A DNA stretch of 8,311 bases from assembly GCA_022560555.1 (NCBI GenBank), contig JADFSZ010000075.1:1-8311 (forward strand). The letters are read 5' to 3'. Under the pieces are notes generated by a model. The model was not told where the DNA came from and searched no databases. It saw only the letters and a program-made list of their open reading frames with translations. This document shows positions 281-8,311 of this stretch, piece after piece (the stretch's first letter is position 1; each line of letters opens with the position of its first letter). A program made the translations under genes and the position numbers. The DNA is from JADFSZ01 sp022560555 [NCBI: PVC group bacterium]. Its GTDB lineage: Bacteria; GCA-001730085; JADFSZ01.

Positions 281-1195
281 ATGAACATTATGAATAGTGC
301 TGACAAAGATTTGCAAGAAAACCCCCCGGAGGAAAAAAGCAAACTCGGGGTTATTGTCCATTCATTTTTTATCATTCCGTTTCTCATCGCGGTTTTTTGT
401 GTTTTAATCTTTGCGGGTGTGCGCATCCTTACCAAAGAGCCGCATACTGTCTATGATTATATTGAGGACATAAAGGTCGGCTCCCTCAGCAAAAGGTGGC
501 AGGCGGCGTTTGAATTGTCCAAAATCCTTGTAAACAAAGAGAAAGTTCCGCGCGAGGAAGCGTTTGTAAGAGAAATGATCGCGGCGTTTGAACATGCCAA
601 GCATGATGATGCGCGCATCAGACAGTATCTGGGACTTGCTATGGGGCGCTCGGAAATCAAAGCATTTGTACGTCCGATTGAAGACAGCCTTTCTACGGAA
701 TCCGAAGAGAATCTTCCCTCCCTTATTTATGCTCTCGGCCTGTTGAAATCACGGGACACAGCAACAAGCATTCATGATTTCATAAATCATCCTGATACTC
801 GAATACGGCTTTTATCCGTTATGGCGCTCGGAAATATTCAAAATCCTGAAAGCGTGCCTTTCCTTCAAAAAGCTTTGAATGACACAGAAGTCAATGTCCG
901 GTGGGACGCTGCGATTGCTCTGGCCAAATTCGGGGATGATTCAGGCTATTCGGTGCTAAGAAATCTCCTAGATAGAGATTATTTAGCTCAATTTCCGGAG
1001 GTTGATTCCTATGAAGCCAATGAAGCCATAGTTGTGGCCATTGAAGCATCGATCTTGCTCAATCATCCGCAATTAAACGAAACGATTTACCAATTGAGTG
1101 AAAATGATGAAAATATTCGTGTTCGCCGGGTGGCCCTGAAAGCTGTCAAAATGTCAACGGATAAAGCTTCAACCCAAACGCAAAATTCACTATAA
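281..1195 (+). CDS. Membrane-anchored HEAT-repeat protein
   Basis: This 304-residue protein starts with a short polar tail and then one hydrophobic helix at about residues 22-50. The rest is a soluble alpha-helical solenoid. HEAT-type helical pairs are clearest at about 172-200 (TRIRLLSVMALGNI), 203-231 (VNVRWDAAIALAKFGD) and 277-290 (NIRVRRVALKAV). Degenerate repeats lie near 67-83, 112-133 and 143-168. HEAT solenoids are protein-binding scaffolds, and no catalytic residues are seen. It is the first gene of the cluster and ends 6 bases before the Rieske gene, so a role in assembling or holding the quinol oxidoreductase is a fair inference. A free-standing structural subunit is the alternative. 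The start is uncertain: ATG 281 and ATG 290 are both possible and neither has a good Shine-Dalgarno site. The helix would place the solenoid on one side of the membrane, probably the periplasm. Confidence 0.85.
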   Translation: MNIMNSADKDLQENPPEEKSKLGVIVHSFFIIPFLIAVFCVLIFAGVRILTKEPHTVYDYIEDIKVGSLSKRWQAAFELSKILVNKEKVPREEAFVREMIAAFEHAKHDDARIRQYLGLAMGRSEIKAFVRPIEDSLSTESEENLPSLIYALGLLKSRDTATSIHDFINHPDTRIRLLSVMALGNIQNPESVPFLQKALNDTEVNVRWDAAIALAKFGDDSGYSVLRNLLDRDYLAQFPEVDSYEANEAIVVAIEASILLNHPQLNETIYQLSENDENIRVRRVALKAVKMSTDKASTQTQNSL

Positions 1196-1201
1196 TAAAG
1201 T

Positions 1202-1813
1202 ATGACTATGACCGAAGACGCAATAAATCAAAATCCAAATGAAAATCCGGAAAGTCAAAATAAACCGGAAGTGTCTCCACCGGCATCTCCTGTGGGTGAG
1301 AAAACACCCCCCATAGAAGCCAAGGAGAAGGTCAGTCGTCGATCTTTTCTAACCTCAGCGACTCTGGCATGGGGCGCTTTTGCCGTGGCCACCGCGGGAA
1401 TTTTAACCGGTGCCGGGAGATTCTTTTTCCCCAATGTTCTCTTTGAGCCGCCGCAAACTTTTAAGGCCGGGTATCCCGATGAATATACAATCGGAGAAGT
1501 TTCAGAACGATGGAAAGAAAAATTTGGTGTATGGATTGTTCGTGAAAAGGGAATGATCTACGCTCTTTCAACCGTATGTACCCATCTGGGATGTACGCCC
1601 AACTGGCTTGGCAATGAGAAGAAATTTAAATGCCCTTGTCATGGAAGCGGATTCCGGTCGACAGGGATCAATTTTGAAGGTCCGGCACCTCGGCCCTTGG
1701 AACGCTACCGGATTGTTCTGGCTGATGACGGCCAAATTTTTGTGGATAAAACCAAGAAATATCAACATGAAAAGGGACAATGGAGCGATTCTGAGTCCTT
1801 TATTGCTGTTTAA
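1202..1813 (+). CDS. petC: Rieske 2Fe-2S protein of a cytochrome bc/b6f-type complex
   Basis: The iron-sulfur subunit takes one electron from quinol at the Qo site and hands it to a c-type cytochrome. Both cluster-binding boxes are intact: C126-T-H128-L-G-C131 and C144-P-C146-H147-G-S149. C126, H128, C144 and H147 should bind iron, and C131-C146 should form the stabilising disulfide. The Pro loop GPAPRPL follows at 160-166. A twin-arginine signal (SRRSFLT, Arg46-Arg47) precedes a hydrophobic helix at about 52-75. This predicts Tat export of the folded protein, with the helix probably kept as an anchor, as is usual in this family. The first 43 residues form an unusually long, Pro/Asn/Glu-rich cytoplasmic tail. 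The 203-residue length is otherwise ordinary. ATG 1202 or ATG 1208 could be the start, since no clear ribosome binding site separates them. The gene lies 11 bases before the b6 gene. Confidence 0.97.
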   Translation: MTMTEDAINQNPNENPESQNKPEVSPPASPVGEKTPPIEAKEKVSRRSFLTSATLAWGAFAVATAGILTGAGRFFFPNVLFEPPQTFKAGYPDEYTIGEVSERWKEKFGVWIVREKGMIYALSTVCTHLGCTPNWLGNEKKFKCPCHGSGFRSTGINFEGPAPRPLERYRIVLADDGQIFVDKTKKYQHEKGQWSDSESFIAV

Positions 1814-1824: not shown

Positions 1825-2616
1825 ATGGCTGATCCGAAGAAAAAAACGATGTTTCAAAAAATAGCTGAATCCCAATTCCTAAAGTCCATTTTTCGTACGG
1901 GGATCCCGCACACGCGTCGCCAACGCATGATGGCGGTTCTTAATAATGTGTTTCTCCATCTCCACCCGGTTCGCTTACCCAAACATGCCGTCAAAGTGAA
2001 ATACACATGGTGTATGGGGGGCTTGTCCTTTTTTGTTTTTTTGGTTTTGACGGTTACGGGGATTCTTCTCATGTTTTACTACCGTCCTACCGTCGAATAT
2101 GCTTATGGAGACATTATAGATCTTGCCGAGCAAGTGCCCCTGGGAATTATGAGAGAAATTCATCGGTGGGGTGCCCATCTCATGATCATTACTGTTTGGC
2201 TTCATATGTTTCGGGTTTTTATGACAGGATCCTATAAACCGCCGCGGGAATTTAACTGGGTTATAGGGGTTCTCCTTTTGGTACTGACGATGCTTCTGAG
2301 TTTTACAGGGTATCTTTTGCCATGGGACCAGCTCGCTATTTGGGCGATCACAGTCGGATCTAATATGGCAAGAGCAACCCCTTTTCTTGGACACGAGGGG
2401 CCCGGCGCGGCTCTTCTGGCCATAGGGGATATCAATCTTGTTCATGCCGCTAGTGATGTGAGGTTTGCGCTTTTAGGCGGCCGATTTGTCGGTGAAGCCA
2501 CATTACTCAGGTTTTATGTGCTGCATTGTATTGGATTCCCGTTCATTATAATGATCTTTATGGTCGTGCATTTTTGGCGTATCCGAAAAGACGGAGGCAT
2601 ATCCGGGCCAACGTAA
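1825..2616 (+). CDS. petB: Cytochrome b6-like subunit (N-terminal half of cytochrome b)
   Basis: This 263-residue integral membrane protein is the di-haem core of a quinol oxidoreductase. The four b-haem ligands are visible: H113 and H127 on helix B, H234 and H249 on helix D. The H234-H249 pair has 14 residues between the ligands, the b6f-type spacing, against 13 in mitochondrial-type bc1. The Qo-side motif GYLLPWDQ is at 162-169 and the C-terminal RKDGGISGPT is close to that of b6. C63 in WCMGG matches the position of Cys35 in chloroplast b6, which covalently holds haem ci (cn), and the following MFYYRPTV is also b6-like. Four transmembrane helices are expected at about 62-85, 113-134, 145-166 and 228-251. 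Residues 1-60 form a basic, amphipathic N-terminal extension. The loop between PFLG and LRFY is about 20 residues longer than the chloroplast sequence I remember. The next gene begins 2 bases after the stop. Confidence 0.96.
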   Translation: MADPKKKTMFQKIAESQFLKSIFRTGIPHTRRQRMMAVLNNVFLHLHPVRLPKHAVKVKYTWCMGGLSFFVFLVLTVTGILLMFYYRPTVEYAYGDIIDLAEQVPLGIMREIHRWGAHLMIITVWLHMFRVFMTGSYKPPREFNWVIGVLLLVLTMLLSFTGYLLPWDQLAIWAITVGSNMARATPFLGHEGPGAALLAIGDINLVHAASDVRFALLGGRFVGEATLLRFYVLHCIGFPFIIMIFMVVHFWRIRKDGGISGPT

Positions 2617-2618
2617 AT

Positions 2619-3734
2619 ATGGACGCTTTCAAAAGTATAATCAATAGCCTTTCTGAACCCCAGATCATGTTTTCCTTTCTTGTTCTGGTTTTTTTCTTTA
2701 TCTTTCCTCCGAGTGATAAGCTTTACCGGATCCATAAAAAACTCCGATTGGACCTATTGTGGACGAATGTGGGAGGGGTGTTCATTTTTACCGGCCTTTT
2801 TGTGTTTTTTGGTTTGGGCGTGACCGATGAGAATTTTCGACTGATTGTGACAAAGCCCGATAATGTTCCTATTGTGGGCCTGCTCTTTTTGACAATCTTT
2901 TTTCTCTGGCTTAGCATGAAACAGGGCCGCGATAACGATATCCGTTTGGCTGAAGGCCAAAAACCAAACGAATATCATGACCCGGAAGATAAGGTGCTCG
3001 TATGGCCGGATCTTGTCTATATTGAGTTGATCGCCATCGTTCTTTGTTCCATTCTGCTCATGGTGTGGTCCATTTATCTGAAAGCGCCTCTTGAAGGGCC
3101 GGCCAATTTGGCGGACTCCCCGAATCCCTCAAAAGCGCCATGGTATTTCTTGGGTTTGCAAGAGATGCTTGTGTATTTTGATCCCTGGCTCGCAGGTGTT
3201 GTGCTCCCGAGTTTTATCGTTTTGGGTCTGATGGCTATCCCGTATATTGACAGTAATAGAAAAGGACAGGGTTACTATACGTTTAACGAAAGAAAGACAG
3301 AGATATCCTTATTCCTGTTTGGATGGCTCCTTTTATGGGTCTTTCTGATCTTTGTCGGTACATTTTTACGCGGCCCCAACTGGAACTTTTTCGGTCCGTT
3401 TGAAGAATGGAGCCTCAGTAAAGTTGTTCCCTTGACTAATATAAATCTGTCAGAACTCGTCTACGTCAGATGGCTTAAAACGGGATTACCGGACAATATT
3501 TTTCTGAGGGAATTTTTCGGAATTTCATTCGTTGTAGGATATTATTTGATACTGCCTCCGCTCTTGGCTAGAACTATTTTGAAAAAATTCTATTCGAAGA
3601 TGGGGATATTTGCCTTTAGTATGTTCGTGATCTTGCTCCTGACATCCGTGACGCTCCCGATTAAAATGTACCTTCGATGGACCTTGAATCTTAAATATAT
3701 CGTGGCCATTCCCGAATTTTTCTTTAACATTTAG
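2619..3734 (+). CDS. petD: Subunit IV-like cytochrome b C-terminal half, extended
   Basis: This 371-residue multi-span protein supplies the other wall of the Qo site. The core resembling subunit IV spans about 128-210: VWPDLVYIELIAIV, then APWYFLGLQEML at 173-184, then a helix ending in IPYID. WY aligns with the Qo motif PEWY, but the glutamate is missing (Ala173-Pro174-Trp175-Tyr176). The protein is about twice the length of chloroplast subunit IV (about 160 residues). It has extra helices before the core (about 16-31, 49-67, 84-100) and after it (about 228-249, 300-318, 330-349), plus a loop with RGPNWNFFGPFEEW (251-264). That loop recalls other bacterial fused or extended cytochrome b C-terminal proteins. 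ATG 2619 is chosen because it lies 2 bases after the b6 stop and begins a plausible protein. An in-frame ATG at 2526 would add 31 residues that are only a shadow of the b6 gene. Translation is probably coupled to that of b6. Confidence 0.9.
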   Translation: MDAFKSIINSLSEPQIMFSFLVLVFFFIFPPSDKLYRIHKKLRLDLLWTNVGGVFIFTGLFVFFGLGVTDENFRLIVTKPDNVPIVGLLFLTIFFLWLSMKQGRDNDIRLAEGQKPNEYHDPEDKVLVWPDLVYIELIAIVLCSILLMVWSIYLKAPLEGPANLADSPNPSKAPWYFLGLQEMLVYFDPWLAGVVLPSFIVLGLMAIPYIDSNRKGQGYYTFNERKTEISLFLFGWLLLWVFLIFVGTFLRGPNWNFFGPFEEWSLSKVVPLTNINLSELVYVRWLKTGLPDNIFLREFFGISFVVGYYLILPPLLARTILKKFYSKMGIFAFSMFVILLLTSVTLPIKMYLRWTLNLKYIVAIPEFFFNI

Positions 3735-3752: not shown

Positions 3753-6689
3753 GTGGCTGAAAAAAAAGAAGCAAAACAAGAGCGATACTACAGCATCTCT
3801 AAGCTGAATAAGTGGTTCGCTATCTCCAGCATGATTCTTTGTGTGGCCGTATTTGGTGTATTTGCCCAAGATTATCTGAGGGAATGGAGGGTTTTTCAGA
3901 GAGAATTCCGTGAACTGGAAGTGGAAAAAACACGTCAGGCTTATGAGAACGCTCAACAAGATCTTGAGCAAAATCAAGAGTACCAAACGCTCATTGAAGA
4001 TCAGAAGAAAGCGTCCCTGGAACTTGAGGGGAAAGAAGTTCTGCGTAAAGCGCTTCAAAAGGACATTGATAAGCTCGACTCCGAATATTACAGCGTTAAC
4101 CGACGGCATCAGTTCGCCAAGGCCGAATACGATGCCGCGAAATATCGATATGAAGACGCCCAAGATCACGAGGGATTAACAAAAGATATCAGAGACGAGT
4201 TTGCCAAAACCCAATCCCTGATGAAAGAATTAAAAATCAGCGCCGAAGATACGAAAAAGCTTTTGGATTTCAAAAAAGAGGAGCTAAGTTCTTTCGATGA
4301 GAAGATCAATCAGTTGGACAAGGCGAAAGAGGCCTTGTCGCATGAACTTGATGTTATAAATCGGATGCTGGCGAAAATCGATACGGCCCATATGTCTTTT
4401 GGTAACAGGATGGCGGATAAATTCCGAGATTTGCCCATTGTGGATTTTATGAATCCGAGCGAAAGAATTGAACAAGTCGTTGTGAAAGTAGATACGGAAA
4501 ATCTGAATTTTATGCGTGTACCGAGAGTGGATCGTTGTGTGACATGTCATCAGGGAGTACTCAGAAAAGATTTTGCCGACGCGGACAACCCGTATAAAAC
4601 CCATCCTAATCTTGATCTCTTTTTATCCAGCGGATCGCCGCACCCGTTGGAAGAATTTGGCTGTACGAGTTGTCACGCGGGTCGCGGACGAGGCACGGAT
4701 TTTGTCAGTGCCGCGCATACACCTTCAAGTCCTGAACAAGCCAAAGAATGGGAGGAAAAATATGGTTGGCATGAATTCCATCTTTGGGAAGCCCCTATGC
4801 ATGCCAAACCCCATGTGGAAGCCGGATGTTTTAAGTGTCATTCCGGCGAAACAGTGCTTCGGGGTGCCGAGAAACTTACTTTTGGTCTCAATTTGATTGA
4901 GCGCTCAGGCTGTTATTCTTGTCACACAATCGAAAAATATAAAGGCGATCCTAAAACGGGTCCCAATCTTGCTAAAATCTCATCAAAAACATCGAAAGAC
5001 TGGACCTTCCGATGGATCAAAGATCCCCAAGCCTTTCGACCAGGAACATGGATGCCCTCATTTTATGGACTATCCAATAATGATGATCCGGAGTCTGTCC
5101 AATGGACGGATCAAGAGATTCATGCCATTGTGCACTATCTTTACACCGAGAGTGAAAACTATGACATGAAAGAAATCCCTGTAGTGGGCCATTTGGCTCG
5201 CGGGGAAGAACTTGTGTCATCTATCGGGTGTTTTGCCTGTCATAAGGGTCCCAATGAGGACGATGATGAAGATCGGGATCGACAACATCTCCTCAGTGAA
5301 TTCGGACCGCATCTTTTGGGTTTTGGATCTAAAACCAGCGAGAAGTGGCTCTATCATTGGCTGAAAGATCCGAAAACATATCACCCGGATACTCGTATGC
5401 CGAATCTCAGACTCACCGATCAAGAAGCCGCGGATATCTCATCGTATCTCGTCAGTCTTTCAAATGAGGAATTTATGGAATCGTCTGTTCCTGAAATCAA
5501 CGAAGACATGATGGATAACATTACACATGAACTCTTAAGCCTTAAATTTCCCGCATGGGAGGCCGAAGAGAAATTGAAATCCATGTCTCTTGAAGATAAA
5601 TTAGCTTTTAGCGGAGAAACAATTATTCGTCAGCAGGGATGCTTTGCCTGTCACAATATTCCCGGATTTGAAGATGAAAAACCCATCGGAGTCGAACTGA
5701 CGGAAGAGGGAAGCAAGTCACTTCATAAATTTGCTTTTGAACTTTCGGATATCGAGCATAGCAAGGCAGCCTGGTTTCAGACAAAATTGAAACATCCAAG
5801 AATTTTTGATAAAGGGAAAATAAAGGGCCCTTATGAAAAATCCCGAATGCCGAAATTCCAATTTTCGGATGAAGAGATTGATGCGGTTGTGACGGCATTG
5901 CTTGGATTTGTGAAGACAGATCCCAATCTCCGGAAAAAACCCCGAACACCCAAAAACTTGTTTGTTGAAGCCGGGCAGTCTTTTATCCGTCAACACAACT
6001 GTCAGGGATGCCATATCATAGAAGGTGAAGGGGGCGCGATACAGGAGAATATTCAGGATTGGCTTGTGAAACACCAAGGAAAAACCGAAGCGGATGCCGA
6101 AGCCCTGGCCGCAAGTTTCAGCCCTCCGAATCTCATTGGAGAAGGTAAAAAAGTTCAGTCTGATTGGCTGTTTTCTTTTTTACATGAGCCCACAATAATA
6201 CGCCCCTGGCTCAAAGTCCGAATGCCGACGTATGATTTTAATGAAGAAGAGATCAATACGGCGATCAAGTATTTCAATTTTCTGGATGACGAACCGTTTC
6301 CCTTTACCGAGAAAATAAAACCTGATTTGTCCGCGGAAGAGATGGCGGCAGGAGAAAAGATGTATTCACCGGATTATTTTGATTGTTTTAATTGTCATAT
6401 TCGGGGCGCAAAAATGCCGGGTGGAACGCCGGACCGTTGGGCTCCAAATTTGGAACTTGCCAAGGAGCGTCTCAAGGCAAAATGGATCATCGATTGGATC
6501 AAAAACCCGCAAAAACTTCTTCCCGGAACCAAAATGCCGATGTATTTTGATCCTGAATATTTTGATGACTCCGGCCCGGATGACATTTTGGATGGTGATG
6601 AACATGAGCAGATTCGTGTGCTGAGAGACTATCTCCTGGTTTTACCCAAAGCTGCAAATCCTTCGTCTCCAAGTGATCAAGACGGATAA
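3753..6689 (+). CDS. Membrane-anchored octaheme cytochrome c with coiled-coil stalk
   Basis: This 978-residue protein is the likely electron acceptor of the Rieske head, replacing cytochrome f or c1. It starts with GTG 3753; no good alternative start is in frame. One helix (about 20-39) anchors it. Residues about 44-210 are a charged coiled coil, with a probable turn near 138-145 (DHEG), so it may fold back as a hairpin. Eight CxxCH haem sites follow, at C262, C304, C359, C387, C493, C630, C750 and C878. The first three form a block rich in spare histidines (H284, H297, H322, H340, H343, H350, H354) that could be distal ligands. The last five are separate monohaem domains, each with a later Met-Pro axial ligand: M434, M549, M699, M824 and M928. 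Each of these also carries W-x3-[WKF]-[IL]-[KH]-x-P before the Met. Cytochrome c maturation and haem attachment occur in the periplasm. It starts 18 bases after the subunit IV gene. Confidence 0.95.
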   Translation: MAEKKEAKQERYYSISKLNKWFAISSMILCVAVFGVFAQDYLREWRVFQREFRELEVEKTRQAYENAQQDLEQNQEYQTLIEDQKKASLELEGKEVLRKALQKDIDKLDSEYYSVNRRHQFAKAEYDAAKYRYEDAQDHEGLTKDIRDEFAKTQSLMKELKISAEDTKKLLDFKKEELSSFDEKINQLDKAKEALSHELDVINRMLAKIDTAHMSFGNRMADKFRDLPIVDFMNPSERIEQVVVKVDTENLNFMRVPRVDRCVTCHQGVLRKDFADADNPYKTHPNLDLFLSSGSPHPLEEFGCTSCHAGRGRGTDFVSAAHTPSSPEQAKEWEEKYGWHEFHLWEAPMHAKPHVEAGCFKCHSGETVLRGAEKLTFGLNLIERSGCYSCHTIEKYKGDPKTGPNLAKISSKTSKDWTFRWIKDPQAFRPGTWMPSFYGLSNNDDPESVQWTDQEIHAIVHYLYTESENYDMKEIPVVGHLARGEELVSSIGCFACHKGPNEDDDEDRDRQHLLSEFGPHLLGFGSKTSEKWLYHWLKDPKTYHPDTRMPNLRLTDQEAADISSYLVSLSNEEFMESSVPEINEDMMDNITHELLSLKFPAWEAEEKLKSMSLEDKLAFSGETIIRQQGCFACHNIPGFEDEKPIGVELTEEGSKSLHKFAFELSDIEHSKAAWFQTKLKHPRIFDKGKIKGPYEKSRMPKFQFSDEEIDAVVTALLGFVKTDPNLRKKPRTPKNLFVEAGQSFIRQHNCQGCHIIEGEGGAIQENIQDWLVKHQGKTEADAEALAASFSPPNLIGEGKKVQSDWLFSFLHEPTIIRPWLKVRMPTYDFNEEEINTAIKYFNFLDDEPFPFTEKIKPDLSAEEMAAGEKMYSPDYFDCFNCHIRGAKMPGGTPDRWAPNLELAKERLKAKWIIDWIKNPQKLLPGTKMPMYFDPEYFDDSGPDDILDGDEHEQIRVLRDYLLVLPKAANPSSPSDQDG

Positions 6690-6722: not shown

Positions 6723-7505
6723 ATGATTTTGAATATCATCAGCATCATTTTTATTCTCTTCGCTATTTGTTATCCGCTAGGATATGTTTTTCATTTTGGC
6801 GTACCGATAAAACAAAGTTTTGATCGCTTCAATTATGCTTTAATCTCCATCGTTGCGTCTCTGGGAGTTCTGGCGTGCTTTGCCTTAAATATCCCTCGTA
6901 ATTCTCTGATCACTCTTATTGCTTGGGTCATCCTGCTTCTTTGTTTCACCTGGTTTTTGTGGGACCGGGATAAGTATAAGGAGATTGTGCTGATTTTGAT
7001 GTCCATGATAGGGATGCTTGTGTTTGGATTTGTCTCCAAAGACATTTTCCCTACGGCATCCATAAATCTCATATCCATGGCCGTGTGTATTCTCGGAGGT
7101 TGGGTTATTTCCTTGGCCATTTACGCGATGAATCTGGGGCATTGGTATCTGAATGTCAAAAAACTTGATCTTAAACATCTCATAAGAACCGTTTACGGAT
7201 TTACGGGACTTGTTATTTTGAGATTGATTTGGGATGGTGTGATGTTTCTCACTAAAAGCTTTACTTATAGAGGTGAAATGATCAGTTTAGGAAAATATCT
7301 TTTTACTCTTGATGGGGTATTCCTTTGGATCGCCCTTCTTTTCGGATCCGTAGTTCCACTTATTCTTACATTCATGACTCTGGAGACGCTTCGAGTCAAA
7401 TCAACACAATCGGCCACCGGGATCCTCTATGTTATTGTCGTGTCTTTGATGATAGGGGAGCTTACGTACAAATACTACCTCGTCCAATTTGGATGGGTTC
7501 TGTAA
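6723..7505 (+). CDS. Eight-helix integral membrane protein of unknown function
   Basis: This 260-residue protein is almost entirely hydrophobic, with about eight membrane helices near 3-23, 38-55, 60-79, 86-104, 112-135, 155-176, 196-215 and 229-250. Polar residues that could matter inside or at the edge of the membrane are H140 in GHWYLN (139-144), R167, D171, E221, the TQSATG stretch (228-233) and E246. I recognise no domain with confidence. Size and helix content are loosely like membrane quinone-binding anchor subunits, but the similarity is not enough for a call. It begins 33 bases after the octaheme gene and ends 2 bases before the zinc-knuckle gene, so it is probably co-transcribed with the respiratory complex. 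An extra subunit, a quinone- or haem-handling protein, or an assembly factor are all open. Start ATG 6723 has only a weak upstream purine patch. Confidence 0.83.
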   Translation: MILNIISIIFILFAICYPLGYVFHFGVPIKQSFDRFNYALISIVASLGVLACFALNIPRNSLITLIAWVILLLCFTWFLWDRDKYKEIVLILMSMIGMLVFGFVSKDIFPTASINLISMAVCILGGWVISLAIYAMNLGHWYLNVKKLDLKHLIRTVYGFTGLVILRLIWDGVMFLTKSFTYRGEMISLGKYLFTLDGVFLWIALLFGSVVPLILTFMTLETLRVKSTQSATGILYVIVVSLMIGELTYKYYLVQFGWVL

Positions 7506-7507
7506 CG

Positions 7508-7960
7508 ATGAAAACGGTAATCCTTGATTGTTTAGAATGTGATCAATCAACCACTAACGCTGTTGAGGATCAAAATGAAATACTCTGCTCCGGATGTCAA
7601 AAAAAATGGCTTTTTTATTCAGAAGGGTATCAATTTGAAACGTGCCCCATCTGTGAATGTAAAGAGTTTTACCGGCAAAAAGATTTTGATAAACGTATCG
7701 GATGTCTCATTATGTTTGTCGCGATTGTTCTTGTGCCATGGACATACGGGCTTTCGCTCCCGTTCTTTTTTGCGATTGATTGGTTTTTATATCGAAGGGT
7801 CCCCGATATGGCGGTGTGCTATCTGTGCCGGGGTGAGTTTAGAGGATTTGACCTTCAAAAAAAAATCAAAACCTTCAACCATATTATGGCAGAAGGCTTT
7901 GAAAAAAAACGTTTAACGCAAAAGAAATGGTTTTCAAGCCCTCAGGACACCCCCGAATGA
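7508..7960 (+). CDS. Zinc-knuckle membrane protein of unknown function
   Basis: This 150-residue protein has four CxxC pairs: C8/C11, C27/C30, C46/C49 and C104/C107. Single cysteines are at C51 and C66. The first two pairs can form one zinc ribbon at the N-terminus. Two closely spaced hydrophobic helices (about 64-78 and 80-96) separate the third pair from the fourth. If these helices form a hairpin, the third and fourth pairs lie on the same side and could join as a second ribbon. The C-terminus is basic (KKIKTF, EKKRLTQKK), which suggests that the soluble parts are cytoplasmic. ATG 7508 is chosen because it lies 2 bases after the preceding stop. Longer in-frame readings upstream (from 7325) run through the preceding gene and are not protein-like. 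It is the last gene before a 189-base gap. The function is unknown, and a metal-dependent assembly or regulatory role is only an inference. Confidence 0.82.
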   Translation: MKTVILDCLECDQSTTNAVEDQNEILCSGCQKKWLFYSEGYQFETCPICECKEFYRQKDFDKRIGCLIMFVAIVLVPWTYGLSLPFFFAIDWFLYRRVPDMAVCYLCRGEFRGFDLQKKIKTFNHIMAEGFEKKRLTQKKWFSSPQDTPE

Positions 7961-8004
7961 AAATCATCCAAGTCTAATAGTATCAGTATATTAAAAATCT
8001 CATC

Positions 8005-8033
8005 TTGACACAAAATCCCAAATAAGCTACTCT
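8005..8033 (+). promoter_or_regulatory. Candidate promoter for the secreted protein at 8150
   Basis: A perfect -35 hexamer TTGACA lies at 8005-8010. Exactly 17 bases later is TACTCT (8028-8033), which keeps the first two and last bases of TATAAT but is otherwise weak. It lies in the 189-base gap before the gene at 8150, giving a leader of about 110 bases. This suggests that the gene can be transcribed apart from the respiratory cluster. I see no clear intrinsic terminator between 7961 and 8005, so read-through from the cluster also remains possible. Confidence 0.5.
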
Positions 8034-8034
8034 A

Positions 8035-8071
8035 TCGAAAATTTTCAATCTCTGTAAGGGTTTGAATTCGA
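8035..8071 (+). repeat. AT-rich inverted repeat in the leader of the secreted-protein gene
   Basis: TCGAA (8035-8039) pairs with TTCGA (8067-8071), and TTCAA (8044-8048) pairs with TTGAA (8062-8066). A 4-base bulge and a 13-base loop interrupt the structure. The left arm also contains the perfect palindrome GAAAATTTTC (8037-8046). It lies just downstream of the candidate -10, so it could be an operator or a leader hairpin. The pairing is AT-rich and may be chance. Confidence 0.25.
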
Positions 8072-8138
8072 ATAAGTAAAGCCCAATATCGTTCCTTAAA
8101 ACAGAGAGCAGAATGCCCTTAATATCATCCCAAAACCC

Positions 8139-8143
8139 GGAGG
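8139..8143 (+). promoter_or_regulatory. Strong ribosome binding site
   Basis: GGAGG lies 6 bases before ATG 8150. It is the best Shine-Dalgarno sequence in the window and fixes the start of the secreted protein. It suggests higher translation than most genes of the cluster upstream. Confidence 0.85.
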
Positions 8144-8149
8144 ACATTT

Positions 8150-8311
8150 ATGAAACACATTCAAACAATCCTTTTACCTATCATGGCGATCTTTTTGACG
8201 ACAACGTGTGTCGATGCCGCTTCTATCACGGGGAAGGTCGTTTACGAGGGGGCCGTTCCTAACTTAAAACCCATCAGCATGGACGCGGATCCTATATGTG
8301 CCGCAAAGCAT
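8150..8311 (+). CDS. Secreted beta-sandwich-like protein with MDADPxC motif (5' part only)
   Basis: Fifty-four codons are visible and the frame is still open at the window edge. Residues 1-24 form a Sec signal peptide (MKH, then a hydrophobic core to LTTTC, then VDAA). Cleavage is likely after VDAA or nearby, so the protein should be exported. The mature start, SITGKVVYEGAVPNLKPI, resembles the first strands of carboxypeptidase-regulatory-like or cupredoxin-related beta-sandwich proteins. The MDADPICAAKH that follows is a motif I recall from periplasmic proteins of this kind near respiratory gene clusters. The Cys50 and His54 in it could bind metal or haem, which is an inference. It has its own promoter-like region and a strong ribosome binding site, and it follows the respiratory cluster by 189 bases. 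The fold and role cannot be settled from the N-terminus. Confidence 0.82.
   Translation, partial: MKHIQTILLPIMAIFLTTTCVDAASITGKVVYEGAVPNLKPISMDADPICAAKH

What the first reader, a model, noticed from the sequence alone, without database searches (positions are those of the whole stretch)
3753..6689. Octaheme cytochrome built as anchor, coiled-coil stalk, triheme block and five monohaem domains
Seen: eight CxxCH motifs in one 978-residue chain, five of them in repeated domains with a downstream Met-Pro ligand, and one N-terminal helix. In ordinary bc1 or b6f complexes the exit subunit has a single c haem. Placed directly after Rieske, b6 and subunit IV genes, this chain looks like a built-in periplasmic wire that carries electrons away from the Rieske head, perhaps over a long distance. 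It may remove the need for a soluble cytochrome c.
Basis: partly seen in the sequence, partly recalled or inferred. Interest (0 to 1): 0.68.

Follow-up and report, generated by a model that had tools for sequence, protein, structure and literature searches.

The report
Eight-haem exit arm of respiratory complex
A bacterial respiratory complex carries an eight-haem protein arm that probably passes electrons from the membrane towards an oxygen-reducing enzyme; arms of this kind were already known in a few nitrogen-cycle bacteria, but this one belongs to a widely shared gene set, often with a copper protein and sometimes an oxidase beside it.

Summary
The chain at 3753-6689 has eight CxxCH motifs, one N-terminal membrane helix, a helical stalk, a triheme block and five related monohaem domains, directly after Rieske, cytochrome b6 and subunit IV genes. 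In an alignment of 48 stalked octahemes (window plus 47 relatives, chosen for having eight motifs) exactly eight further ligand candidates are invariant: three His and five Met. So all eight haems look six-coordinate; the protein looks like a conductor, not an enzyme. Subunit IV lies just upstream in 46 of 47 stalked loci with enough DNA. An amicyanin-like cupredoxin gene starts inside the window at 8150. A contig of the same genome overlaps the window's end (94.6%) and continues into cytochrome c oxidase genes. Most likely this is the exit subunit of a complex III that feeds the oxidase, probably through the copper protein. The kind is not new: Nitrospina, Kuenenia and Methylomirabilis have Rieske/b6 operons with an octaheme. 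Unlike Kuenenia's, this operon shows no NAD(P) oxidoreductase. Haem spacing could not be measured (model pLDDT 54). 'No soluble carrier needed' is only partly supported: a copper carrier is encoded next door.

The parts
281..1195 (+). HEAT-repeat protein, 304 aa, one N-terminal hydrophobic helix; first gene of the operon
   Evidence: PF13646 E 4.8e-20; helix; a HEAT hit within 4.5 kb upstream in 26 of 31 stalked loci with at least 4 kb upstream DNA
1202..1813 (+). Rieske [2Fe-2S] protein; CTHLGC and CPCHGSGF ligand motifs, Ser present, Phe where others have Tyr
   Evidence: PF00355 E 1.5e-11; motifs
1825..2616 (+). cytochrome b6-type: His113/127 and His234/249 (spacing 14 and 15), Cys63 at the haem cn position (position recalled from b6f)
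   Evidence: PF00033 E 1e-43; residues
2613..3734 (+). subunit IV-like protein, 373 aa, about 8 hydrophobic segments; overlaps the b6 stop codon (start codon chosen by me)
   Evidence: PF00032 E 3.2e-4, 21.3 bits against a cut-off of 20.7; hydropathy
3753..6689 (+). octaheme cytochrome c, 978 aa, exit subunit
3798..3875 (+). N-terminal membrane anchor (residues 16-41)
   Evidence: hydropathy peak 21-39; helix 15-41
3882..4427 (+). helical / coiled-coil stalk (residues 44-225)
   Evidence: model helices, block pLDDT mostly 61-87; weak SMC-type matches
4434..4850 (+). triheme block, CxxCH 262/304/359, distal candidates His284, His297, His322
   Evidence: invariant in 48 of 48 rows; PF14522 and PF14537 matches overlap it
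4860..5162 (+). monohaem domain 1, CxxCH 387, Met434; SoxX/CcoO-like
5178..5468 (+). monohaem domain 2, CxxCH 493, Met549
5589..5918 (+). monohaem domain 3, CxxCH 630, Met699
5955..6290 (+). monohaem domain 4, CxxCH 750, Met824
6330..6647 (+). monohaem domain 5, CxxCH 878, Met928
6723..7505 (+). membrane protein, 260 aa, no Pfam or NCBIfam match up to E 0.1; same place in L003, L066, L115, L117, upstream of the operon in L105, L109
7508..7960 (+). small membrane protein with zinc-ribbon-like Cys pairs (my reading), travels with the 260-aa gene
8150..8311 (+). first 54 residues of a cupredoxin gene, cut by the window end; complete on contig C138 (L025:489-1187), followed by COX1, COX3 and a cut COX4
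   Evidence: overlap of window 7661-8311 with C138 1-650 at 94.6%; translation; COX1 and COX3 by Pfam

Best explanation
The protein is the built-in electron-exit subunit of a Rieske/cytochrome b6-type quinol oxidase (complex III). Quinol is oxidised at the b6/subunit IV core and the Rieske domain takes the high-potential electron (inferred from the families). Its head passes it to the nearest haem of the octaheme subunit (inferred). The electron then moves along bis-His and His/Met haems in the periplasm (ligand sets suggested by conservation, conduction inferred). It leaves to the co-encoded amicyanin-like cupredoxin and from there to CuA of the co-encoded cytochrome c oxidase (gene neighbourhood shown, transfer inferred; aa3 type inferred from the CtaA gene). 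The stalk probably wraps the membrane part or holds the haem train above the Rieske head, as the published Kuenenia model suggests.
For: Gene order HEAT-Rieske-b6-IV-octaheme in loci whose titles name Neomarinimicrobiota and Acidobacteria and in sister genome G001; Rieske-b6-IV-octaheme in the Omnitrophota locus L003, whose contig starts just before Rieske and so cannot show the first gene. Linkage counts. Three His and five Met besides the eight CxxCH His invariant in 48 of 48 rows; all 48 stalked loci counted have eight CxxCH. Cupredoxin within 4.5 kb downstream, either strand, in 23 of 33 stalked loci with at least 3 kb downstream. Its ligands H, C, H, M are kept in 37-38 of 39 rows; model pLDDT 82 for the L005 homologue; amicyanin is the best PDB match, E 8.6e-5, TM 0.62 on the amicyanin length. 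COX1 within 8 kb downstream in 7 of 26 stalked loci with at least 5 kb; COX1, CtaA or CtaB downstream in 12 of 33. COX1 in 11 of 13 genomes that hold the octaheme. Of 10 COX2 hits 9 have the CuA motif; the tenth (L014) is cut by the end of the locus. This Rieske is the only respiratory-type one found in the 91.5%-complete genome (the other of 2 PF00355 hits is a 108-aa ferredoxin-like protein), and no NrfD (ACIII) match was found in 2 of 2 genomes.
Against: Haem distances and Rieske docking could not be measured. 10 of 33 stalked loci lack a cupredoxin hit and 19 of 26 lack COX1 in the DNA seen; in L006, L007, L009 and L014 the cupredoxin is on the opposite strand, and in L100 COX1 is, so these are not one operon. 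Two of 13 genomes, G002 (the Omnitrophota locus L003) and G008 (L010), gave no COX1 match (drafts of unknown completeness), so other acceptors are possible. The link from the window to its own oxidase rests on a contig overlap at 94.6%, not 100%, so the two contigs may come from two strains. The own genome also has other c haem proteins (C56, C204) and a type II DMSO-reductase-like cluster that could exchange electrons with it. Family searches in genomes are blunt: PF14522 hits this protein alone but not in the genome search.
Confidence: 0.6

Rival explanations
1. Carrier-free supercomplex: the octaheme docks straight on CuA of the oxidase and replaces any soluble carrier, as the diheme QcrC does in actinobacteria (recalled). 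The cupredoxin serves assembly or another branch.
For: COX genes on the same contig in L004, L005, L006 and L014 and in L082, L083, L084. G001 has no PF00034 or PF13442 match outside the octaheme. Its COX2 has CuA and no CxxCH of its own.
Against: An amicyanin-like protein with a full type 1 copper ligand set is encoded between octaheme and oxidase in L004, L005, L082, L083 and L084, and before the oxidase genes on C138. No complex was modelled.
Confidence: 0.2
2. NAD(P)-linked bifurcation as proposed for Kuenenia: the low-potential branch reduces NAD(P) and the octaheme only drains the high-potential branch.
For: Kuenenia's Kustd1480-1485 combines an octaheme with an NAD(P) oxidoreductase (PMC12954380). 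Relatives of the other class (4-8 haems) have such a gene in the same locus in 10 of 13 cases.
Against: 0 of 48 stalked loci have that gene in the DNA seen. The window's cytochrome b keeps Cys63 for haem cn (34 of 37 stalked rows with a letter, 0 of 12 others); but the Kuenenia complexes are also said to have haem cn, so this is weak.
Confidence: 0.05
3. The octaheme is an enzyme (nitrite, tetrathionate or similar reductase) that uses the complex as its electron source.
For: An octaheme nitrite reductase sits beside Rieske/b genes in Nitrospira (PMC6606698 and PMC12342949, passages), and an octaheme beside Rieske/b genes in Caldithrix (PMC5317091, passages).
Against: All eight haems have CxxCH and there are eight invariant distal candidates, so no haem is left without one. 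The domain matches are SoxX, CcoO and class I cytochromes c.
Confidence: 0.04
4. Outward wire: the haem train leads to an outer-membrane conduit and extracellular acceptors.
For: Length and number of haems; weak MtrC-type match (PF22113, E 1.1e-6, 28.7 bits, below its cut-off of 30); no COX1 found in G002 and G008.
Against: No PF14522 match and one broken PF09699 match in two genomes (these searches are blunt). Copper and oxidase genes are frequent neighbours.
Confidence: 0.06

Closest known systems
Nitrospina gracilis complex III operon with 'atypical octaheme cytochrome c' (PMC3578206, passages read)
   Same: operon with moderate similarity to complex III, split b/b6-type cytochrome b, and an octaheme as the only c subunit beside it; the paper says the same operon is kept in Kuenenia and Methylomirabilis oxyfera
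   Different: HEAT gene, cupredoxin and oxidase beside the operon are not mentioned in the passages read; sequences could not be compared here
Kuenenia stuttgartiensis Kustd1480-1485 (PMC12954380, passages, section 13 and part 1 of section 14 read)
   Same: b6-like cytochrome b, subunit IV with extra helices, octaheme with long alpha-helices, Rieske with Ser but without the Tyr (as in Kustd1480)
   Different: Kuenenia's has an NAD(P) oxidoreductase subunit; none seen here. Subunit IV has about 8 hydrophobic segments here against five helices there
Kuenenia Kuste4569-4573 (hexaheme; same paper)
   Same: Rieske/b6 complex with multihaem exit subunit; relatives of the other class found here have 4-8 haems
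   Different: said to be far smaller than Kustd1485; NAD(P) oxidoreductase; HAO-like partner Kuste4574
Actinobacterial bcc-aa3 supercomplex (QcrC; recalled)
   Same: exit cytochrome built in and tied to aa3
   Different: two haems, cytochrome b not split
Cytochrome b6f (cytochrome f)
   Same: b6 and subunit IV split, b6-type His spacing, haem cn Cys (spacing and position recalled)
   Different: monohaem cytochrome f replaced by an octaheme
Geobacter Ext operon cytochromes ExtP/ExtQ/ExtS (NCBIfam)
   Same: best NCBIfam matches for b6 (ExtP 270 bits) and subunit IV (ExtQ 62.5 bits)
   Different: all below the curated cut-offs (290, 150; ExtS 57 against 100)

Membership tests
Rieske/b6 complex with octaheme c subunit (Nitrospina/Kuenenia kind) | Rieske gene with 2Cys-2His motifs | tested here: met
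   PF00355; CTHLGC, CPCHG
Rieske/b6 complex with octaheme c subunit (Nitrospina/Kuenenia kind) | b6-type cytochrome b split from a subunit IV-like protein | tested here: met
   PF00033 on one gene, PF00032 (just over cut-off) on the next; His spacing 14/15
Rieske/b6 complex with octaheme c subunit (Nitrospina/Kuenenia kind) | eight-haem c subunit in the operon | tested here: met
Rieske/b6 complex with octaheme c subunit (Nitrospina/Kuenenia kind) | sequence homology to the Nitrospina or Kuenenia octaheme | not testable with these tools
   their sequences were not reached; the single genome-contig scan returned other phyla
Kuenenia NAD(P)-linked subtype | NAD(P) oxidoreductase gene in the operon | tested here: not met
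   none among the window's genes; 0 of 48 stalked loci, 10 of 13 of the other class
Cytochrome bc1 / b6f | monohaem cytochrome c1 or f | tested here: not met
   no such match among the window's genes; octaheme in its place
Actinobacterial bcc complex | diheme QcrC | tested here: not met
   QcrC model 35.4 bits against a cut-off of 200
Alternative complex III | NrfD-like membrane subunits | tested here: not met
   0 of 2 genomes
Octaheme nitrite/tetrathionate reductase or HAO | a catalytic haem with an open site or unusual proximal ligand | tested here: not met
   8 CxxCH and 8 invariant distal candidates in 48 of 48 rows; by conservation only, no spectra
Blue copper protein (for the downstream gene) | cupredoxin fold with His-Cys-His-Met site | tested here: met
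   ligands in 37-38 of 39 rows; fold match to amicyanin, made on the L005 homologue; no Pfam cupredoxin model matched the own protein; copper binding itself untested

The most novel reading that the evidence does not exclude
A widespread respiratory module of little-studied phyla, in which a stalked octaheme with fixed ligands (three bis-His and five His/Met haems) joins a b6-type complex III to an aa3 oxidase, either directly or through a dedicated blue copper protein. It would work as a wire and as an electron store for up to eight electrons, with no soluble cytochrome c in the chain. Stalk, haem cn cysteine, HEAT subunit and oxidase partner would mark one branch; loss of the stalk and gain of an NAD(P) oxidoreductase would mark a sister branch.
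Probability: 0.27. Interest if true: 0.68.

Novelty: new member of a known kind. Interest (0 to 1): 0.47.

Why it matters
The 2025 Kuenenia paper says that the need for so many c haems in such complexes is not entirely clear (PMC12954380, section 14). Here eight haems and their ligand candidates are fixed across loci from several phyla, the complex keeps one gene order, and a copper protein plus CuA oxidase are the likely acceptors. That turns an open question into a testable chain, in two genomes where this is the only complex III that my searches found.

Tried and rejected
Structure of the whole octaheme: AlphaFold2 on 12 sequences gave pLDDT 54 and pTM 0.39; I drew no haem distances from it and did not search folds with it. 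Relatives in viral contigs and plasmids: none. Solved structures: seven sequences matched, of CcoO type, one Sco/cytochrome c and ACIII subunit A, each over one part of the chain. Rfam: nothing at the gathering score in the window. Futalosine menaquinone route (PF02621): 0 of 2 genomes, so the quinone stays unknown. COX1 hits of G001 on C85, C86 and C30 were set aside as likely mitochondrial contamination: in L062 a complex I 49 kDa subunit and ribosomal protein S12 lie beside COX1.

Rows and classes. Of the loci in hand I counted 61 unique places, 48 stalked and 13 not. Left out as repeats of the same genomes: L015, L016, L029-L039, L041-L043, L047, L048, L050, L052-L055, L057, L058, L110-L113; and L022, a fragment from the genome of L006. 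The class was set by the position of the first haem (220 or later = stalked), with two exceptions: L073 and L080 were moved to the other class because of their haem spacing (37/37) and their place in the cytochrome b tree; their true starts are unknown. Spacing alone does not separate the classes. L075 and L078 carry the label A7 in the tree but belong to the unstalked class. L088 (4 haems, no Rieske or b gene seen) is counted as a miss. The 48 alignment rows are not the same set as the 48 stalked loci: they were chosen for eight CxxCH, first haem at 220 or later, more than 900 residues and a start inside the locus. In the wider set of 63 rows (at least 5 haems) His297 is kept in 61, Met549 in 62 and Met928 in only 51, so the last haem's Met is not fixed outside the stalked class. 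The 40 regions were my pick from the match list (20 diverged or split matches, 20 near full length), not a random sample. Neighbour counts ignore strand.

One search was a rejected filing (field format only).

Literature: 10 searches (one search was an input error) listed the Nitrospina and Kuenenia work; among the listings and passages I saw no paper joining octaheme, cupredoxin and aa3. The library is open access only, so this is no proof of absence.
Full report
What is there. The window lies at C44:1-8311 of a 1.66 Mb, 222-contig genome (91.5% complete) whose phylum has only two genomes in the collection searched. Its genes on the + strand are a HEAT-repeat protein, Rieske, cytochrome b6, a subunit IV-like protein, the octaheme, a 260-aa membrane protein without a family match, a small protein with zinc-ribbon-like Cys pairs, and the first 54 residues of a cupredoxin gene. 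Chance would give 0.01 motif.

Anatomy. Membrane anchor 16-41; helical stalk 44-225; triheme block with CxxCH 262, 304, 359; five monohaem domains with CxxCH 387, 493, 630, 750, 878 and MP at 434, 549, 699, 824, 928. The five domains are related (10 of 10 HHalign pairs at 93.2-99.9), of SoxX/CcoO/class I type. In 48 rows of stalked octahemes (window plus 47, selected for eight CxxCH) the eight CxxCH His are invariant by selection; independently of it three other His (284, 297, 322) and five Met (434, 549, 699, 824, 928) are invariant, and the next best His or Met is M349 in 44 of 48. The simplest reading is three bis-His and five His/Met haems. That speaks for a conductor and against a catalytic haem. 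It rests on conservation, not on spectra.

Distribution and linkage. The one genome-contig scan gave 12 loci, with titles naming Omnitrophota, Neomarinimicrobiota/Marinimicrobia and Acidobacteria or Sulfopaludibacter, best segments 37-50% identical, matched over almost the whole length, each with exactly eight CxxCH. In samples of whole genomes, matches at E 1e-20 or better were found in 94 of 247 (phylum of the Acidobacteria locus L012), 48 of 149 (phylum of the Neomarinimicrobiota locus L004) and 40 of 193 (phylum of the Omnitrophota locus L003). By my count of those tables, 35, 46 and 33 of these have one match spanning at least 700 of 980 profile positions; some of these have in-frame stops. 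Of 48 stalked loci, subunit IV is found upstream in 46 of 47 with enough DNA, cytochrome b in 43 of 44, Rieske in 36 of 37, each time with L077 as the one miss, and HEAT in 26 of 31 (misses L077, L084, L089, L093, L099).

Two classes. The 13 other relatives have 4 (one), 5 (two), 6 (one), 7 (two) or 8 (seven) haems. By motif count and spacing most look like the triheme block followed by two to five monohaem motifs (L088, with four haems, does not fit). They too sit beside cytochrome b (12 of 13), and 10 of 13 have an NAD(P) oxidoreductase with Fe-S domains in the same locus (hits of 623-673 residues; two of them checked by Pfam). None of 48 stalked loci has it. Stalked loci have HEAT upstream (26 of 31 against 0 of 12) and often the cupredoxin downstream (23 of 33 against 0 of 13; 6 of 12 of the other class have it upstream instead). 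Cys63 of cytochrome b, the haem cn position by comparison with b6f (recalled), is Cys in 34 of 37 stalked rows with a letter there (the others Gly), and in 0 of 12 of the other class. In a cytochrome b tree of 48 rows, 36 stalked octaheme rows form one group with 99/92 support; the long branches of the other class are placed unsurely.

The acceptor side. Window 7661-8311 overlaps contig C138 of the same genome at 94.6% over 651 bases. C138 goes on with the full cupredoxin gene, COX1, COX3 and a cut COX4 and ends. The two contigs may be from two strains. Four loci with Neomarinimicrobiota or Marinimicrobia titles (L004, L005, L006, L014) carry octaheme, cupredoxin and COX genes on one contig, though in L006 and L014 the cupredoxin is on the opposite strand; L082, L083 and L084 carry them on one strand. 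In sister genome G001 the octaheme operon (C66) and a cupredoxin-COX1-COX3-COX4-COX2-CtaA-CtaB-Sco cluster (C100) lie on two contigs (COX2, COX3, COX4, CtaA, UbiA-family and Sco by Pfam). The cupredoxin keeps His, Cys, His, Met in 37-38 of 39 rows. Its L005 homologue folds with pLDDT 82 and matches amicyanin best, E 8.6e-5. G001's COX2 has the CuA motif and no haem motif. In G001 class I cytochrome c profiles hit only the octaheme; the own genome has two other such proteins, one with a DUF1573 domain (C204) and one in a type II DMSO-reductase-like cluster (C56). Against a strict tie to the oxidase: COX1 was found in 11 of 13 genomes with the octaheme, not in G002 and G008, and within 8 kb downstream in only 7 of 26 stalked loci.

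Mechanism. The best reading is the exit arm of a complex III that feeds an aa3-type oxidase, probably through the copper protein. Shown: gene neighbourhood, ligand conservation, cupredoxin fold (by prediction), CuA motif. Inferred: quinol oxidation, the Rieske-to-haem step, conduction, transfer to copper. The direct supercomplex without a carrier is the main rival.

Known or new. The Nitrospina paper (passages) reports an atypical octaheme as the only c subunit beside its complex III-like operon and says the same order is kept in Kuenenia and Methylomirabilis. The 2025 Kuenenia paper (passages, section 13, part 1 of section 14) models Kustd1480-1485 with a cytochrome whose long helices wrap halfway round the complex, and says the need for so many haems is not entirely clear. 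The window's complex is a new member of that kind by architecture; sequence homology to those proteins was not testable. Absence of the NAD(P) oxidoreductase and the ties to cupredoxin and oxidase set it apart from the Kuenenia subtype. I found no paper that describes this set, within the limits of an open-access library (searches listed under Tried and rejected).

Noticed in passing
L059 (G000:C56):222-7290: Own genome: a diheme cytochrome c fused to an ethylbenzene-dehydrogenase-type domain, a 1151-aa TAT-marked molybdopterin enzyme of the type II DMSO reductase family and the start of its Fe-S subunit. It resembles nitrite oxidoreductase/nitrate reductase sets (resemblance recalled) and could exchange electrons with the octaheme complex.
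   Followed up: partly
G001 contigs C85, C86, C30 (L062, L063, L065): Three similar contigs with cox1, complex I and ribosomal protein S12 genes look like a mitochondrial genome (my reading), so the sister MAG seems contaminated.
   Followed up: partly
6723-7960: A pair of genes (a 260-aa membrane protein without family match and a small Cys-pair membrane protein) follows the octaheme in L003, L066, L115 and L117 and precedes the operon in L105 and L109.
   Followed up: partly
2613-3734: The subunit IV-like protein is long (373 aa, about 8 hydrophobic segments) against three helices in b6f and five reported for Kuenenia.
   Followed up: partly
L071/L072, L077/L078, L079/L080: Single genomes from the Acidobacteria sample (G085, G144, G110) hold both classes of the complex, on different contigs.
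   Followed up: no
L088 (G056:C18): A 4-haem relative of 567 aa with no Rieske or cytochrome b gene found in 12 kb.
   Followed up: no
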